Translations under genes and position numbers: made by a program
The notes under the pieces: model-generated
Database searches by the model: none
Told to the model about the DNA's origin: nothing
What the model saw: the letters and a program-made list of their open reading frames with translations, nothing else
Shown here: one piece after another, positions 381 through 6,778 of the stretch
Layout of the letters: each line of letters begins with the position of its first letter
Position numbering within the stretch: the stretch's first letter is position 1
Source: Thermoplasmata archaeon
Lineage (GTDB): Archaea; Thermoplasmatota; Thermoplasmata; Thermoplasmatales; Thermoplasmataceae
Assembly (NCBI GenBank): GCA_021806345.1
Contig: JAJZXP010000235.1
Location: 1-6,778, forward strand
Reading direction: 5' to 3'
Length of the DNA: 6,778 nt

Positions 381-3300
381 TTAAGGCTCCAAATAATCCT
401 TATAATTATTCAACGTCTTCAACTGGACTACTTCATTTCGTAATTTGACTTTGAAACAATGCACTACCCTGAATAGTCCGGATTCTTTAACTAAATTATT
501 AAGTTCTACTTTTATCTGGTCATGAAGGAACCGGAGATCTTTTTCGAGTTTTCTTCCAGATAAAAGGGACCCTCTAAAACCTTGCAGAAATGTAGAAGCT
601 AGATAGCTTCTCTCCCCGTTCGCAAGTTCCAGGTTCATATCAGGAAACTTGCTGTTTATCCCCTCATATATCTTTTGAATATCTGTTATGCTCTTAGGAT
701 GCTCTACCCAGTACACTTGATACTTACTATGTCCAAGTTCTATTACTTCGTAATCATTCCACCATTTTTTAATATATTCAGGATCACTGGCGTTTAAACT
801 GAGTGTCGATAGAAATTCTGACAATTGATTATTAGCGGCACATTCAGTAACATTATTTTTTAATCTATAGTTCTCAAATGTTTTGCGCAAATCATTAATC
901 CAGCGTTGACTGTCTGCAAATATTTCTTCAAACCCGTTCCATTCATATGGGCCTTTTCTAAACACCGTGTTTTTTGCATATTTCCTCATATAAATTATAA
1001 ACGCGGTCTTAAAGGATCGATATAACCCGTTTGAATCAACCAAAATATTTTTACCAACAAGGGCTTTTTCTTTTTCCCTACCTCTCATTAAGGTTAAATC
1101 TATTTCCGTGAGTTTTTCCTTTTCCTTAACTGTGAGATTTGAATCTACTGGAATGAACATTCCATTATCCATTGAATCAATAATCAGCAATGCTTCTTCT
1201 CCAGATTTTATCTTTGCATATTCATAATGTCTTACAATTTCATTTTCGTCCGTATACTTACCAGCTGCGTAGTTTATTTCGCTTAACACATAATCATCTT
1301 CTACTTCCTGTATAGTATCGTGGAAAAGGGGACTAGCTTCCATGCTCACTTCTTTTACCACATTTGGTGCTGTGTCGTGTTCTGATAAAATTCTAAATGG
1401 TCTTGATTTAATATCAAATAGTCTATTGTTCACTATAGCTTTTGTTTTCTCCAAGTTGGCAGTTGCCCCTAAAAAGATGAATTCATTTGCTTTGCTATCA
1501 TATATAGAATATCCCATGCTCGGATACGAAGTTGCAAGTATTACATAATTGAAGTTAGGGGACATACCGGATTCTATATTTACTAATTTATCCCATGTGG
1601 AAATTCGAACCCTTTTTGCATCGGCATCGGATAAAGAGATTTCATTAATCAATGTTTGTGTACCCTTCAAATCCCTATAATTCACAATAATTGAGACCAC
1701 GTTATCTCTGATTTGTAAAAGTTCTAACAAAACTTTTTTTGCCTCCTCCCAAAGAGGATTGGTGTGTAACTCTCCATTGAAAGTATATAATGAACTCAAG
1801 CTGTTGTTAAATTTATCAAATATCGATTCCCCCAACTTTTCCTTTATCATAGCCATTACTGAATCATATGATAATATGTCTAAGGTATTACCCTTTCTTT
1901 TGAAAGAATCTGTACTAGAAGGATTTCCGTATAAGTCTAAAAAACTTTTAAGAAGTTCTCTAAAAAAGTAAGCGATATCCCGTTTCAAATTCTGGTTAAA
2001 AATCTCATCAAGGTAACCCAGGTTTTCCATTAGGTCATCCAAGGACTTTACTATAACGTATTTAATCAAAGGCTCTATATGATTTTGCTTTCCAATTTCT
2101 TTCCATAATGAAGATAACGGATTGTAGTAGTATTTGTCTGTTGGTGGGTTCTTCTCCCATAACTTGTTTAGAAATATCGCGGAATCACAAGTATGCACTG
2201 ATACATTTGATTCTTCTGATAGTGGTGCTCCATATATGTTGTATAAATGTCTGTAGTCTTTGTTGGTCGAAAACATGATAATATTTGATGTGTTATTTTG
2301 TTTTAGAAGCTTAAGCAAACTACGATAATTTGGGCCATTCATGAGTTTGTCCTTTATGAACCAGTCACAGTTTGGAAAAATAACAAGACCCGGTTTTATT
2401 TCTCTTAGCTTCTCGAAGATGAATTCATGATCTTCTTCATTGAGAAAAATCAATCTGCTATTTCCCAAATTGTCGTTTGCTGAAGCACTGCAAAGGTATT
2501 TAGGAGGAAATTTCTTTTTTGCCTTAACGATTTTCTCCGAATTCAGAAGATTTTCCCAAAGCCATCTCTTGTCGTATACGAATTTCCCAGTATATTTTTT
2601 TATTTCATCTATTCTGAGGTCTATCTTGCCGTCCGGGTTCAGTAATGAAGTTTCTTTTTCCTTTTCTAAACGTTTGATAGTTAAGTTTCTAACGCAATTC
2701 TCTCCGTATTCCGATCTTAGCTGTTTCAAAACCATGTTTTTGCATTGAATGACGCTTTTATCCGTCGTATACTTTGTCCTATCTTTACTTCCAACCCGTT
2801 TTTCTTCATACTCTACAATTTTTTCTAGTTTTATAAAATCAGTGCTATCTATCTTCTTCATTTCATTATTGGTCTCTGTGTTTCCTTGGTTCAATTGAGA
2901 ATCATCGTCATAGAAAACCATTTTATCGAACGATTCCATAATGTTTGATGCATGTATAATATGGTCCTCATGGTCTTGTATTTCATCAATTACAACTACT
3001 CTCTTCCCTTCATTTTGTAACAGATATTGAACTATTAGAATTGGTATAAATTTTACTTTCTTCCAAGGCCAAGTAACAAGTATATTATTAGGTGGCGTCA
3101 GTTCTTTAAGCCAATCAATATAAGACTGTTCCAAGAGATTGCTCTCTACTGCCCAGGGAAGCTTAATAAATGACGTTGATTCCTTAGGAATAGATGGGTT
3201 CAATCTGTATACCTTATCAAATGTATGTGGAAATCTTTCTTTATAGAACTTTAGCTTGTTAGTAAAAATGCAACCACAATTATTGCATTTAAACCAATCA

Positions 3301-3383
3301 GAATCTAACTCCTCTAATTGTGTGCCTATCAGATGCGGTTCTTTACAGTCAGGACATGTTATGCACAAATGAAAATATTTCAT
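381..3383 (-). CDS. Large zinc-ribbon protein with degenerate ATPase/helicase-like region (possible DISARM component)
   Basis: This 1000-residue protein is not one I can name. It starts at an ATG overlapping the stop of the PLD gene (ATGA), with GAGGGAGAG directly upstream. Residues 7-38 form a likely zinc ribbon: C7, C10-x2-C13, then C33-x2-C36. Residues 101-131 (ILVTWPWKKV..., then GKRVVVI) have the shape of helicase motif I and the following strand, but WPWKKVKF replaces the GxGK[T/S] loop. VVVIDEIQD at 129-137 resembles a Walker B DExx box, though unusually close to the loop. A polar, charged stretch covers roughly 155-260. A second alpha/beta region (564-650) contains strands SIIVNYRD, RVRISTWDKL and YVILATSYPS, then FIFLGATANLEK, suggestive of the second RecA-like domain of SF1/SF2 helicases without clear catalytic arginines. 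The C-terminal third is helical and unassigned. There is no visible signal peptide or membrane span. Inferred role: DNA-binding or scaffolding partner of the DrmA/B/C proteins. Comparison with DrmE of class 2 DISARM is the first test. Confidence 0.8.
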   Translation of the reverse strand: MKYFHLCITCPDCKEPHLIGTQLEELDSDWFKCNNCGCIFTNKLKFYKERFPHTFDKVYRLNPSIPKESTSFIKLPWAVESNLLEQSYIDWLKELTPPNNILVTWPWKKVKFIPILIVQYLLQNEGKRVVVIDEIQDHEDHIIHASNIMESFDKMVFYDDDSQLNQGNTETNNEMKKIDSTDFIKLEKIVEYEEKRVGSKDRTKYTTDKSVIQCKNMVLKQLRSEYGENCVRNLTIKRLEKEKETSLLNPDGKIDLRIDEIKKYTGKFVYDKRWLWENLLNSEKIVKAKKKFPPKYLCSASANDNLGNSRLIFLNEEDHEFIFEKLREIKPGLVIFPNCDWFIKDKLMNGPNYRSLLKLLKQNNTSNIIMFSTNKDYRHLYNIYGAPLSEESNVSVHTCDSAIFLNKLWEKNPPTDKYYYNPLSSLWKEIGKQNHIEPLIKYVIVKSLDDLMENLGYLDEIFNQNLKRDIAYFFRELLKSFLDLYGNPSSTDSFKRKGNTLDILSYDSVMAMIKEKLGESIFDKFNNSLSSLYTFNGELHTNPLWEEAKKVLLELLQIRDNVVSIIVNYRDLKGTQTLINEISLSDADAKRVRISTWDKLVNIESGMSPNFNYVILATSYPSMGYSIYDSKANEFIFLGATANLEKTKAIVNNRLFDIKSRPFRILSEHDTAPNVVKEVSMEASPLFHDTIQEVEDDYVLSEINYAAGKYTDENEIVRHYEYAKIKSGEEALLIIDSMDNGMFIPVDSNLTVKEKEKLTEIDLTLMRGREKEKALVGKNILVDSNGLYRSFKTAFIIYMRKYAKNTVFRKGPYEWNGFEEIFADSQRWINDLRKTFENYRLKNNVTECAANNQLSEFLSTLSLNASDPEYIKKWWNDYEVIELGHSKYQVYWVEHPKSITDIQKIYEGINSKFPDMNLELANGERSYLASTFLQGFRGSLLSGRKLEKDLRFLHDQIKVELNNLVKESGLFRVVHCFKVKLRNEVVQLKTLNNYKDYLEP

Positions 3384-3850
3384 CTCTCCCTCAATCTACG
3401 TAAAAGCATTTCCAGTTTATGCGCAATTGCTGGTATATGGATTTCAACTCCTAATTCATAATTGGTCACCATGCCAGCAAAAGTCGTATTAGCTGAGCCA
3501 ACTATTGCTTTTTTCATATCAGAAATAATCACCTTGGAATGAAGCACGTTGTTTTCAACTCTGAACACATTGAGATTAAGGTATTTGTTTTCTAGCTCCT
3601 TCAGTTTCCTAAGATATTCTTCTGAAATAGACGTGCTACTATAATTTAGATAAATTTCAACTGAAACTCCTCTTTCCAGTGCTAAGCGAAGCTTTTCTAT
3701 AATTTGATCATCCGAGAGGGCAAAGATGGTCAGCGAAAGGCTATCCTGTGTTCTATCAATAAGTTCTTTTGTAGTTTCCGAAAATGCTCTTATTCCATTC
3801 CCTACCCATTTGTCGCCAGTTGCTAATATTTTAACATCCAGATCTTTCAT
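3380..3850 (-). CDS. drmC: DrmC-like phospholipase-D family nuclease-type protein
   Basis: The protein belongs to the phospholipase D superfamily. It carries one complete HKD motif, H104-x-K106-x4-D111-x6-G118-S119-x-N121, numbered from the ATG at 3850. Upstream is the usual alpha/beta PLD half-domain: a strand at residues 38-45 (LSLTIFAL), a helix, then VSVEIYLN. With a single HKD motif, family members normally dimerise to build one active site on phosphodiesters, often nucleic acid. At 156 residues it is little more than the PLD domain. I prefer the ATG at 3850, 1 nt after the TAG of drmB. A TTG at 3862 would add four residues and overlap drmB by 11 nt; neither start has a strong Shine-Dalgarno. 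The stop overlaps the next ATG (ATGA). The drmC label rests on position after drmA and drmB as much as on sequence. A standalone Nuc-like PLD nuclease is the alternative. Confidence 0.82.
   Translation of the reverse strand: MKDLDVKILATGDKWVGNGIRAFSETTKELIDRTQDSLSLTIFALSDDQIIEKLRLALERGVSVEIYLNYSSTSISEEYLRKLKELENKYLNLNVFRVENNVLHSKVIISDMKKAIVGSANTTFAGMVTNYELGVEIHIPAIAHKLEMLLRRLRER
3384..3392 (-). promoter_or_regulatory. Strong ribosome-binding site of the 1000-residue gene
   Basis: The minus strand reads GAGGGAGAG immediately before the ATG at 3383, with GAGG 5 nt away from the start. It lies inside the last codons of the PLD gene. It is the clearest Shine-Dalgarno of the cluster and suggests that the last gene has its own initiation signal as well as coupling to the gene before it. 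Confidence 0.65.
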
Positions 3851-3851
3851 A

Positions 3852-5657
3852 CTAATCGCCAATAACTATGTGACGATCAAGGCACATATTTCTATGCTCA
3901 CAGGATGTTTCTGATGTAAACAGACAGCTGTAACAGGCTGCACCATTAACCTTATTGGTCACTTTCTTTGTTTCAAAACATAATGGGTCGTTTGAGCAAA
4001 AACGTAAGTTAGTAATGGCCTGTCCAAATATCTCTTCAAGTTGTATTTGATTTGTTATACCGATGAGACCACCCATACTTCCATCGTCACCTGGAGAAGT
4101 GGTATAAATCAATATACCTCCTTTCTTGAATTTGCGATCAACATACACTCTTTCCCTGAGAGATGAAGAAGAGTATCCACCATATTGAGAAAGGGCCCTT
4201 ATTAGTGCATGGGAAATAGAATGATACAATACAAACATAGGTCTTGCAGGAATGTTCTCCCAGTATTGGTTTCCAAATGTAATCCCTGAATTCTTGTCCG
4301 ACTCTATTTCCCAGGAGTTATCTTCATTGAAAGATGACTCATTAAAGTCATCTTCAAGTGTTATGAATAAACCTTCTCCCTTCCCTTCAAATCCAGGGTA
4401 CCAACTCATTCCTCCCATTTCTATTTGAGACGATACTTGCCTATTGGATGAGTCAATGACTGTTTTATTGTTGCCTTCTGTATATGGTGTTCTAGTGTAA
4501 CCTATTTGTGCAGTAACCGTTCTCAACCTATCTATGGGATAAACCACAAATGGGAATTTGTAAGATTTCACGTAAATAGGTTCCAGGATACTGAAGTTAT
4601 CAGTACATCTCGGCGCCCCACTTGCCAATGATTCAAACTCTTCATAAATGAAATCCATGAATTTCCTATCTTTGTCATTCAGTTTGTTAAAATAAGTGAT
4701 CAAATCTAATTTACTATTTTTATTTACATAATCGCTTATTGTTTCTTTAGCCTCTGTTGAGATATGCGTTAGCCGATCCAAAGCGGCTAAAAAATCCTGA
4801 TCAGACAGAGCAGAACCAGTGACTATCAACGCCTCTATTGCAGAACTCACCTCTACTCTTTGAAGCACACTGGATATGCTTTTATCATATTCAGGTATTG
4901 TTAAGAAAGTTATAGTATCTGTAACTCTGAGAGCACTTGATTGTCTCTGCAGCGTCTTCATAATTTTATTACACTCACCTGTATTTCTTTCGACTCCCGT
5001 TATTGATGGCCGATCATCAGTTTTGTTCAAGGGGAGTTCCGTCTCTGGTAACCTCGCTGTACAGGGAAAATCAATATTATATATCTCCTCCATGTTGGTT
5101 GATGCACCGCACTTATGACATGATATTGTTATATCTGCTAGAGAGCTTCCTTGGCTATTCCAGTTAAAATAACTCTGTTCACATTTACCACCCTTTTTCG
5201 AATGAACTGCATAATTCCACTTTACTTCATCCATATGGCCATTTATGCAAGCCATTACGAATCTTACGGCAGATGAATCGTAATCTTTGTTACAGATTGG
5301 ACAACCCGTGGTGCCATAGAGGATCGGATCATGATTTGCTTTTCTACCATAGCATATCCTCCACCTGGGAAAGTAATACGTTGAATAAATGGCTTTATAT
5401 GAAGGAATATTGAGACCAGCGTTCGTTGGCAGTGCAAATACTCCTGCGTCTTTACCTTTTAAGTTCTTCAAAACCACCCTCAATCTGCTATCTACTATCT
5501 CGAAATCTCTTATGTTGCTTGAATTTAAATACCTTGTACTTACTCCTTTGTTTATTGAAGGAATCAGTCTCGGCCCTCCTTCGCTTTCTATTATTGCTCC
5601 GGGTCCGTATATAAGTATAAATTGAGATCTTGTAAGATGTTGTACTTTCCCTGTCAT
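3852..5657 (-). CDS. drmB: DrmB-like DUF1998 zinc-binding protein (DISARM core)
   Basis: DrmB is the DUF1998 partner of the DrmA helicase in DISARM, and this 601-residue protein shows the family pattern throughout. The N-terminus has R10-S-Q-F-I-L-I-Y-G-P-G-A (10-21), the typical RSQ...GPGA opening. Probable zinc ligands follow: C119/C122 (GCPIC), C137 within the family signature FVMACINGHMDEVKW (133-147), C159 and C180/C183. The central part has R377-x5-Q384-I-G-Y-T-R389 and GEGLFI (427-432). DUF1998 occupies about 475-596: YHSISHALIRAL, then SLRERVYV, GGILIYTTSPGDDGSMGGL, C554-SNDPLC560 and C575-YSC578 followed by C586, C592 and LDR. The ATG immediately follows the TGA of drmA (TGAATG) and lacks a well-spaced Shine-Dalgarno, so translation is probably coupled. 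The ATG is supported because the family opening begins only ten residues in. The gene is complete, with no frameshift or lost motif. Confidence 0.93.
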   Translation of the reverse strand: MTGKVQHLTRSQFILIYGPGAIIESEGGPRLIPSINKGVSTRYLNSSNIRDFEIVDSRLRVVLKNLKGKDAGVFALPTNAGLNIPSYKAIYSTYYFPRWRICYGRKANHDPILYGTTGCPICNKDYDSSAVRFVMACINGHMDEVKWNYAVHSKKGGKCEQSYFNWNSQGSSLADITISCHKCGASTNMEEIYNIDFPCTARLPETELPLNKTDDRPSITGVERNTGECNKIMKTLQRQSSALRVTDTITFLTIPEYDKSISSVLQRVEVSSAIEALIVTGSALSDQDFLAALDRLTHISTEAKETISDYVNKNSKLDLITYFNKLNDKDRKFMDFIYEEFESLASGAPRCTDNFSILEPIYVKSYKFPFVVYPIDRLRTVTAQIGYTRTPYTEGNNKTVIDSSNRQVSSQIEMGGMSWYPGFEGKGEGLFITLEDDFNESSFNEDNSWEIESDKNSGITFGNQYWENIPARPMFVLYHSISHALIRALSQYGGYSSSSLRERVYVDRKFKKGGILIYTTSPGDDGSMGGLIGITNQIQLEEIFGQAITNLRFCSNDPLCFETKKVTNKVNGAACYSCLFTSETSCEHRNMCLDRHIVIGD

Positions 5658-5658
5658 T
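5643..5658 (-). repeat. drmB start, second copy of the 16-bp repeat
   Basis: AATGACAGGGAAAGTA on the minus strand spans the drmA stop/drmB start junction and codons 1-5 of drmB. The identical 16 bases occur in the intergenic region at 165-150. Confidence 0.5.
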
Positions 5659-6778
5659 CAAACCACAAATCCTGTTGTCTCCTCAACTTCTCTAAGTGAT
5701 TGAGGTACATTGTCAAAGACAATGGAAAGCCCTTTATTTTTATGATATGGATCGCCCAGCACAACATTTTCATTGGCCTTATAGTATTCAGCAAAAACCA
5801 TCTTTGAGACAGATCTAGACTTATTGATCCATTTATCTGCTTCACTCTCTATGTAGTTAATCAGTGTGTTCACTTTAACGATTTCCATCATTGCTGACAG
5901 TCTTTCACGAATAAAATTTTCAAAAACGATCAAATCAATTTTTGAACCTTGCTTCAAGATAACTTTTCCATCGCCCCCATTCCAGTCGACTGAACTATGA
6001 AGAAAATTTCTAAGGAAAGACACCATTGACGGACCTACGCCCCTTGCCATACTACCCTCTGCATATGGAAATACTGAGGATGGTTCCACCTCTAAGTATT
6101 TTCTTTGATGGTAGGCTGGGAAAGCTTCATAGTGGCTAAGGTCTCTTGGTCTCCCTGAACGCAAGAACGTAACAACTAAACCTCCATGCTTTCGTCCTAC
6201 TCGTCCAGTTGCCTGAATATATTGGGTAGTTGTTTTTGGTTGACCGTTTACGACCATAAGGGATAAGTGAGAAATATCAACTCCAGTGCCAAACATGGAT
6301 GTTGTAAAAATGCTATCTGGGTTTAAGGAAATATCTCTTTCCTCCCCACGCTCTAGATCGTCAAGTAACTGTGGTATGTCGGTTGAGTTTATCCTGCTTG
6401 AGAGTTCTGTAACATTCCCTTGATCTAACATTCTGGGGTTGCCTGCCGAGATATTATGAATACGCTCAACAGTATCTGCCCGATAAAGGCCTCTTGCTCC
6501 TCCAAGTTCTTTTATTGAATTAAAATAGCCAACAAGAGTCCAGAAAAACTTGCTATTACTGTCACTTCGAAGCTGATAAACACTCTGAAGAAGATTAGCC
6601 CATATGCGTATGTTAGGGGTAAGGGGGCCCCACCCTGGAGAATATATTCCAGCATAGATCCTCCCTGCTATATCTTCGTTCCAGCTTTTGTTTCTGTCCC
6701 TTTCTCTGACGAAGAAGCTATCCTCGATTTTAAGCCCATTGGGGGGGAACTGACAAACTTCCCTTGCAAACAGTCTTT
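5658..6778 (-). CDS. drmA: DrmA-like SF2 helicase, C-terminal part only
   Basis: The frame is open from the TGA at 5660-5658 to the right edge, giving 372 visible residues; the start lies outside the window. An ATG at 6431 is internal, since the frame upstream of it encodes family-typical sequence: FPPNGLKIEDSFFVRERD, then GPLTPNIRIWANLL, LVGYFNSIKELGGARG and DTVERIHNISAGNPRML. After that come helicase motif V (SMFGTGVDISHLSLMVVNG), motif VI (QYIQATGRVGR, arginine finger region) and the DrmA-type continuation GLVVTFLRSGRPRDLSHYE and YHQRKYLEVEPSSVFPYAEG. The tail is helical with charged stretches. Together these identify the second RecA-like domain and C-terminal extension of a DrmA helicase, an ATP-dependent DNA-acting enzyme that works with DrmB. 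The Walker A and DExH motifs must lie in the missing N-terminal part and cannot be checked. The stop abuts the drmB start. A 7-C run at 6747-6741 keeps the frame. Confidence 0.92.
   Translation of the reverse strand, partial: RLFAREVCQFPPNGLKIEDSFFVRERDRNKSWNEDIAGRIYAGIYSPGWGPLTPNIRIWANLLQSVYQLRSDSNSKFFWTLVGYFNSIKELGGARGLYRADTVERIHNISAGNPRMLDQGNVTELSSRINSTDIPQLLDDLERGEERDISLNPDSIFTTSMFGTGVDISHLSLMVVNGQPKTTTQYIQATGRVGRKHGGLVVTFLRSGRPRDLSHYEAFPAYHQRKYLEVEPSSVFPYAEGSMARGVGPSMVSFLRNFLHSSVDWNGGDGKVILKQGSKIDLIVFENFIRERLSAMMEIVKVNTLINYIESEADKWINKSRSVSKMVFAEYYKANENVVLGDPYHKNKGLSIVFDNVPQSLREVEETTGFVV

What the first reader, a model, noticed from the sequence alone, without database searches (positions are those of the whole stretch)
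381..6778. DISARM-core operon with an unassigned 1000-residue fourth member downstream of drmC
DrmA, DrmB and DrmC signatures are clear, but the fourth gene is translationally coupled through ATGA, has its own strong Shine-Dalgarno and does not look like a methyltransferase or a canonical SNF2 helicase. Such tight linkage implies a shared function. It could be a very divergent DrmE or a new component defining a DISARM variant.
Basis: partly seen in the sequence, partly recalled or inferred. Interest (0 to 1): 0.72.

Follow-up and report, generated by a model that had tools for sequence, protein, structure and literature searches.

The report
Archaeal DISARM operon with divergent DrmE
The window holds part of an archaeal antiviral DISARM operon whose unassigned fourth protein looks like a very distant relative of the known DISARM protein DrmE, built like a helicase that has lost its ATP-binding motifs.

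Summary
drmA (3' part), drmB, drmC and a 1000-residue gene (here X) lie on the minus strand, X overlapping drmC by ATGA. X reaches no Pfam, NCBIfam or PADLOC family. The contig continues past the window: glycosylase and C5-cytosine methyltransferase genes precede a full drmA, so the operon is MTase-glycosylase-drmA-drmB-drmC-X. X is a rare family, seen here only in archaea where the organism is named. In 12 of 12 X loci whose neighbourhood I read, X directly follows drmC, drmB or a fused drmAB gene. DrmE HMMs miss X even at E<=10. Profile-profile comparison links X to DrmE (score 53.5, probability 70%; at most 30.7 in 60 shuffles), and X sits in the slot after drmC that DrmE holds in 4 of 5 archaeal loci read. 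The X model (pLDDT 84.6) matches RIG-I/Hef-type SF2 helicases over residues 77-671, yet none of 19 X sequences has a Walker A motif or a DExH at the motif II place. Best reading: a class-2-like archaeal DISARM subtype, its DrmE-like protein a dead helicase serving as DNA-binding or scaffold subunit. The mechanism is inferred.

The parts
5661..6776 (-). drmA, 3' part (372 aa in window; full gene 5661-9407 on the contig, 1249 aa, PTGGGKT and DELH motifs)
   Evidence: PADLOC DrmA 1.1e-153; NCBIfam DrmAL 500 bits, partial gene; complete on the contig; motifs
3855..5657 (-). drmB, 601 aa, DUF1998/MZB C-terminus
   Evidence: PADLOC DrmB 4.9e-193; Pfam MZB 2.5e-10; NCBIfam DrmB_fam 449.5 bits, cut-off 240
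3383..3862 (-). drmC, short PLD-type nuclease (160 aa from TTG), one HxK motif
   Evidence: PADLOC DrmC 1.7e-45; PLDc_2 3e-20; HSK motif
381..3383 (-). X: 1000-aa DrmE-like protein, stop codon included in the coordinates; N-terminal zinc-ribbon-like CxxC pairs, degenerate SF2 helicase core (residues about 77-671), C-terminal beta plus helical part
   Evidence: No family hit; relatives; model pLDDT 84.6; SF2 helicase fold; remote DrmE homology
3380..3383 (-). ATGA overlap of the drmC stop and the X start
   Evidence: 4-base drmC-X overlap in 7 of 7 loci with a separate drmC

Best explanation
X is the fourth core subunit of an archaeal DISARM subtype and a very distant homologue of DrmE. Its fold is that of an SF2 helicase of the RIG-I/Hef kind that has lost the ATP-binding and hydrolysis motifs, with an N-terminal zinc ribbon added. 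Most likely it is a non-catalytic DNA-binding and scaffolding subunit. It would be made together with the PLD nuclease DrmC (overlapping genes) and would position that nuclease, and the DrmAB helicase, on incoming unmodified DNA, much as the dead helicase domain of XPF serves its nuclease (XPF comparison recalled). The C5-methyltransferase of the operon would mark host DNA. The MutY/Mig-like glycosylase would repair the T:G mismatches that deamination of 5-methylcytosine produces. Shown: gene content, linkage, motif loss. Supported by computation: DrmE homology and fold. Inferred: DNA binding, scaffolding, antiviral activity, glycosylase substrate.
Confidence: 0.6

Rival explanations
1. X is a DISARM component not descended from DrmE: an inactivated Hef/RIG-I-type helicase recruited independently in archaea to fill a similar slot.
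For: DrmE HMMs miss X at E<=10. X and DrmE are joined by one 70% profile hit that weakens with other alignments. DrmA of X loci does not group with DrmA of archaeal DrmE loci. The X model matches RIG-I and Hef.
Against: X resembles DrmE (score 53.5) far more than it resembles Hef (27.7), and DrmE resembles Hef no better (29.0). Segments outside the helicase core fall in order too, though not significantly.
Confidence: 0.24
2. X is an active ATPase or translocase whose motifs have merely drifted; the lysine of TWPWxxVKF would replace the Walker A lysine.
For: P106 is invariant over 14 aligned X proteins and the lysine at 111 is kept in 13 of 16 long X sequences, at the Walker A place of the model (strand 99-104, helix 113-123).
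Against: No glycine-rich loop and no GK[ST] in 19 of 19; motif II mostly reads [PQETK][ND]xD; the lysine is R, R or N in three long relatives and E, P or S in the three short ones.
Confidence: 0.1
3. The glycosylase of the operon is an effector (a base-excision restriction enzyme), not a repair enzyme, and X directs it.
For: Restriction glycosylases exist (PMC10273834, passages read). The glycosylase gene is embedded in the operon.
Against: Best PDB match is the G-T mismatch enzyme 1kea (2.7e-38), with MutY almost tied (8.8e-38). In L071, which lacks X and the glycosylase, a Vsr mismatch endonuclease gene follows the MTase, which fits repair of deaminated 5mC.
Confidence: 0.08
4. X is a neighbour by chance with a housekeeping role.
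For: None found.
Against: 12 of 12 loci linked, from several archaeal groups; 4-base overlap with drmC in 7 of 7.
Confidence: 0.02

Closest known systems
DISARM class 2 (DrmA, DrmB, DrmC, DrmE, DrmMII; definition read in a passage of PMC9252829)
   Same: DrmA, DrmB, DrmC and a C5-cytosine methyltransferase; a large protein with remote DrmE similarity
   Different: X is below every DrmE HMM tried; a MutY/Mig-like glycosylase gene is built in; DrmC is short (140-172 aa in the 7 loci measured) or absent
DrmE family (NF038316, NF038323, Pfam PF24957 DrmE_C)
   Same: Position after drmC as in 4 of 5 archaeal DrmE loci; profile-profile similarity; helicase-like model; similar order of predicted secondary structure (by eye)
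   Different: No HMM match at E<=10; zinc ribbon at the N-terminus; about 940-1030 aa (short form about 805-825) against 651-874 for the four complete-looking and one plasmid DrmE used here
RIG-I/MDA5, Hef and XPF helicase domains (SF2)
   Same: Predicted fold of residues 77-671
   Different: ATPase motifs lost; no significant sequence-profile match to Hef; XPF not distinguished from other SF2 helicases
Mig.Mth (1kea) T:G mismatch glycosylase beside an archaeal C5-MTase (the pairing is recalled, not from a call)
   Same: Closest PDB relative of the L013 glycosylase; about 220 aa, no MutY C-terminal domain; next to a C5-MTase
   Different: Lies inside a DISARM operon; substrate untested, MutY nearly as similar

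Membership tests
DISARM core | DrmA, SF2 helicase with intact motifs | tested here: met
   PTGGGKT and DELH in the full-length gene
DISARM core | DrmB (DUF1998/MZB) | tested here: met
   over the NCBIfam cut-off
DISARM core | DrmC, PLD nuclease | tested here: met
   NCBIfam DISARM_DrmC_I 79 bits is under its 133-bit cut-off
DISARM class 1 | DrmD SNF2-like helicase and DrmMI | tested here: not met
   Neither among the ORFs of the 11,705-base contig; the contig ends 365 bases past the MTase, and no genome-wide DrmD search was made
DISARM class 2 | DrmMII C5-cytosine methyltransferase | tested here: met
   Contig 10099-11340, outside the window, Pfam DNA_methylase 6.1e-58
DISARM class 2 | DrmE, as recognised by family HMMs | tested here: not met
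   NF038316 and PF24957: 0 of 8 genomes at E<=10; Pfam, NCBIfam and PADLOC hmmscan none at E<=1
DrmE family | Remote homology by profile-profile alignment | tested here: met
   Score 53.5 against at most 30.7 in 60 shuffles; probability 70%, but 51% and 19% with other alignments
DrmE family | Same fold | tested here: inconclusive
   Both models match SF2 helicases, but DrmE pLDDT is only 57
Active SF2 helicase | Walker A GK[ST] and DExH/D motif II | tested here: not met
   Walker A in 0 of 19; no DExH/D at the motif II position; stray DExH/D strings elsewhere in 7 of 19
RIG-I/Hef/XPF family | Sequence-level membership | tested here: inconclusive
Mig-type T:G glycosylase | HhH-GPD fold, FeS cysteines, about 220 aa | tested here: met
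   (9 sequences, four C-terminal cysteines in each); Pfam HhH-GPD 26.0 bits, just below the 26.2 cut-off, for the own copy
Mig-type T:G glycosylase | Excision of T opposite G | not testable with these tools
   Needs a biochemical assay

The most novel reading that the evidence does not exclude
Archaea carry a DISARM subtype built around a dead RIG-I-like helicase that senses foreign DNA structures without ATP hydrolysis and hands them to a separate PLD nuclease, with a dedicated base-excision enzyme policing the system's own 5-methylcytosine marks. DrmE in general would then be a pseudo-helicase sensor.
Probability: 0.25. Interest if true: 0.72.

Novelty: new variant of a known kind. Interest (0 to 1): 0.5.

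Why it matters
In the passages read here DrmE has no assigned function, and PMC9142583 calls for study of DrmD and DrmE. X gives a confident model of a DrmE-like protein and suggests that this subunit is an inactivated helicase, which can be tested at once on purified protein. The operon also shows a glycosylase, probably for mismatch repair, built into a DISARM locus, which suggests that the cost of 5-methylcytosine deamination matters for such systems in archaea. The three family libraries searched here miss the fourth gene.

Tried and rejected
Direct family searches of X (Pfam, NCBIfam, PADLOC) gave only noise; PDB sequence searches gave only noise or zinc-finger matches. X was not found in plasmids (E<=1), in viral contigs (two peptide patterns) or, as a single-sequence query, in genome contigs; the alignment query, which used one peptide pattern, then found 6 loci, so distant relatives may have been missed. 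The last protein search, with alignment A2, added one fragment only. Two short matches (G500, G047; zinc ribbon only) were dropped as spurious. L029 (DrmE_fam 2.1e-5, a stop inside) and the other short DrmE_fam hits were not counted as DrmE; one of them, in G185, lies in a Hef ORF.

The first profile comparison of X and DrmE gave only 27 columns at 19%; the larger alignments gave 70%. DrmE structure as a direct test: the model came out at pLDDT 57 and its VIA rows mix helicases and AAA+ proteins, so fold agreement is support, not proof. Secondary structures of X and DrmE were compared by eye. The DrmA tree (11 of the 12 X loci, L014 left out because its drmA is in pieces) was tried to place X loci among DISARM classes: they form a group with L071 (100/100) away from archaeal DrmE loci, but branches are long and it does not settle the class. 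Literature: searches listed no paper that, by title, abstract or the passages read, describes X, an archaeal DISARM with a glycosylase, or DrmE as a helicase-like protein; the listed papers were not all opened. Ofir et al. 2018 is not held and was not read.
Full report
What is there. On the minus strand of the window lie drmA (3' part), drmB, drmC and X, closely packed. DrmA, DrmB and DrmC are assigned by PADLOC at E 1e-45 or better. In NCBIfam only DrmB passes its curated cut-off; DrmA is partial in the window and DrmC is short. X is 1000 aa with no match of note in Pfam, NCBIfam or PADLOC. Its start overlaps the drmC stop as ATGA.

Beyond the window. The window is the start of an 11,705-base contig of its genome; the copy held differs from it at 10 of 6778 bases. 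Searching the genome with a relative's DrmA and glycosylase placed full drmA at 5661-9407 and a glycosylase at 9407-10087; a C5-methyltransferase gene lies at 10099-11340. The operon therefore reads MTase, glycosylase, drmA, drmB, drmC, X.

How widespread X is. A protein search found 11 proteins, the window's own included; two carry an organism name, a Thermoplasmatales and a Helarchaeota MAG. X was found in 7 of 400 genomes of the class. A pattern scan of 84,980 species gave 6 loci: a Thermoplasmatota MAG, Bathyarchaeota, Archaeoglobales, Aciduliprofundum, Ferroplasma acidarmanus Fer1 and Heimdallarchaeota. All named holders are archaea.

Linkage. I read 12 distinct X loci: own, L013-L019, L053, L054, L057 and L072 (in L017 X is cut by the contig end). 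In 12 of 12, X directly follows drmC (7), drmB (2: L015, L016) or a fused drmAB gene (3: L018, L019, L072). The drmC-X overlap is 4 bases in 7 of 7. Conversely, DrmB was found in 11 of 400 class genomes at 13 places, 10 over the cut-off. Of those 10, 9 have X beside them; L071 does not, and has drmA-drmB-drmC-MTase-Vsr instead. The 3 places under the cut-off show no X: one has a DrmE (L075), one an unassigned 1049-aa protein (L074), and in one the contig ends just past drmC (L073). Where the flank is visible, an MTase and a glycosylase accompany X in 9 of 9 loci (own, L013, L014, L015, L016, L053, L054, L019, L072; in L019 and L072 they lie after X; in L014 and L016 the MTase was recognised from its sequence only, in L016 as a fragment). 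L057 shows a glycosylase fragment at the contig edge; L017 and L018 end too early.

Is X DrmE? By family HMM, no: NF038316 and PF24957 find nothing at E<=10 in 8 genomes, 7 of which carry X. By profile-profile alignment, probably. A profile of 19 X sequences against 6 DrmE proteins scores 53.5 (probability 70%, E 4e-5, 292 columns); weaker segments before and after it lie in the same order but are not significant alone. Adding L074 lowers this to 51%; the first, smaller alignments gave 19% over 27 columns. Sixty block-shuffled DrmE profiles reached 30.7 at most, reversed profiles 21.2. X against DrmA, DrmB, MTase, UvrD and Hef profiles gave at most 2.1%. DrmE against the one bacterial DrmE-like protein (L021) scores about as well (73.9%), but X against that protein gives nothing. 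In an unfiltered hmmsearch with the DrmE profile, the X proteins of L013 and L014 were the best hits after the DrmE and DrmE-like proteins, at E 0.008 and 0.09, not significant alone; the reverse search with the X profile did not single out DrmE. Position: in 4 of 5 archaeal loci with DrmE (L046, L047, L048, L075) that gene directly follows a drmC-like gene, as X does; of these only L046 passes the NF038316 cut-off, L047 and L048 score 72 and 49 bits against 80, and L075 was matched by my own DrmE profile. In the fifth, Haloplanus plasmid L049, DrmE precedes the helicase gene, as the DrmE-like gene does in the bacterial L021. None of the genomes with X also had a DrmE_fam match at E<=1e-3 in the 389 genomes searched both ways, though numbers are small.

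Catalysis. At the Walker A position long X proteins read TWPWxxVKF or close to it, at motif II mostly [PQETK][ND]xD, at motif III mostly FST. Of 19 sequences, 0 have a P-loop GK[ST]; 7 of 19 hold a stray DExH/D string elsewhere. DrmA in the same operons keeps a TGxGKT or AGGGKT loop and DELH or DEMH in 12 of 12. X is thus most likely a dead helicase.

Glycosylase. The L013 enzyme's best PDB match is 1kea, a G-T mismatch enzyme (2.7e-38), with MutY entries practically tied (8.8e-38). It has 228 aa and no MutY C-terminal domain. Its place beside a C5-MTase, and the Vsr mismatch endonuclease gene after the MTase in L071, favour repair of deaminated 5-methylcytosine. That archaeal Mig.Mth accompanies a C5-MTase is recalled, not from a call.

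Mechanism. PMC9142583 (passages) describes DrmAB activation by unmodified 5' overhangs and names DrmD and DrmE as open. PMC12458937 (abstract and passages) describes DrmC as the PLD nuclease and mentions many uncharacterised DISARM-like classes. PMC9252829 and PMC11705971 (passages) give the class 2 definition and an archaeal provirus case; PMC10273834 (passages) treats restriction glycosylases. I propose that X binds DNA and holds DrmC and DrmAB on it; this is inference.

Verdict. A new variant of a known kind: an archaeal, class-2-like DISARM with a highly divergent DrmE-like pseudo-helicase and a built-in glycosylase.

Noticed in passing
L071 (G018:C62), 4459-12963: DISARM core drmA-drmB-drmC followed by a C5-MTase and a Vsr mismatch endonuclease gene, without X or glycosylase.
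   Followed up: partly
L016, L018 and L072 (G390: contigs 112, 120, 115): One genome carries three separate X-type loci, two of them with fused DrmA-DrmB proteins and short X (823 and 807 aa).
   Followed up: partly
L014, 9622-13400: drmA of an Aciduliprofundum sp. MAG is in two pieces in the assembly; cause (real or assembly) unknown.
   Followed up: no
L074, 4306-7452: Unassigned 1049-aa protein directly after a drmA-drmB-drmC set in another class genome; no Pfam match at E<=0.1; possibly a further DrmE-like group.
   Followed up: partly
L015, 3535-6306: UvrD/RecB-like helicase with a Cas4-like end next to the Ferroplasma acidarmanus DISARM locus.
   Followed up: no
L030 (G185:C44:45789-46274): NCBIfam DrmE_fam weakly hits (E 9.8e-4) an ORF that also matches the Hef helicase family, a hint by sequence that DrmE itself is helicase-derived.
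   Followed up: partly
L020, 2936-5404: Upstream of drmA-drmB on a Priestia megaterium plasmid three adjacent ORFs stand where DrmE would be expected; the third matches the DrmE profile (E 2.3e-6).
   Followed up: no
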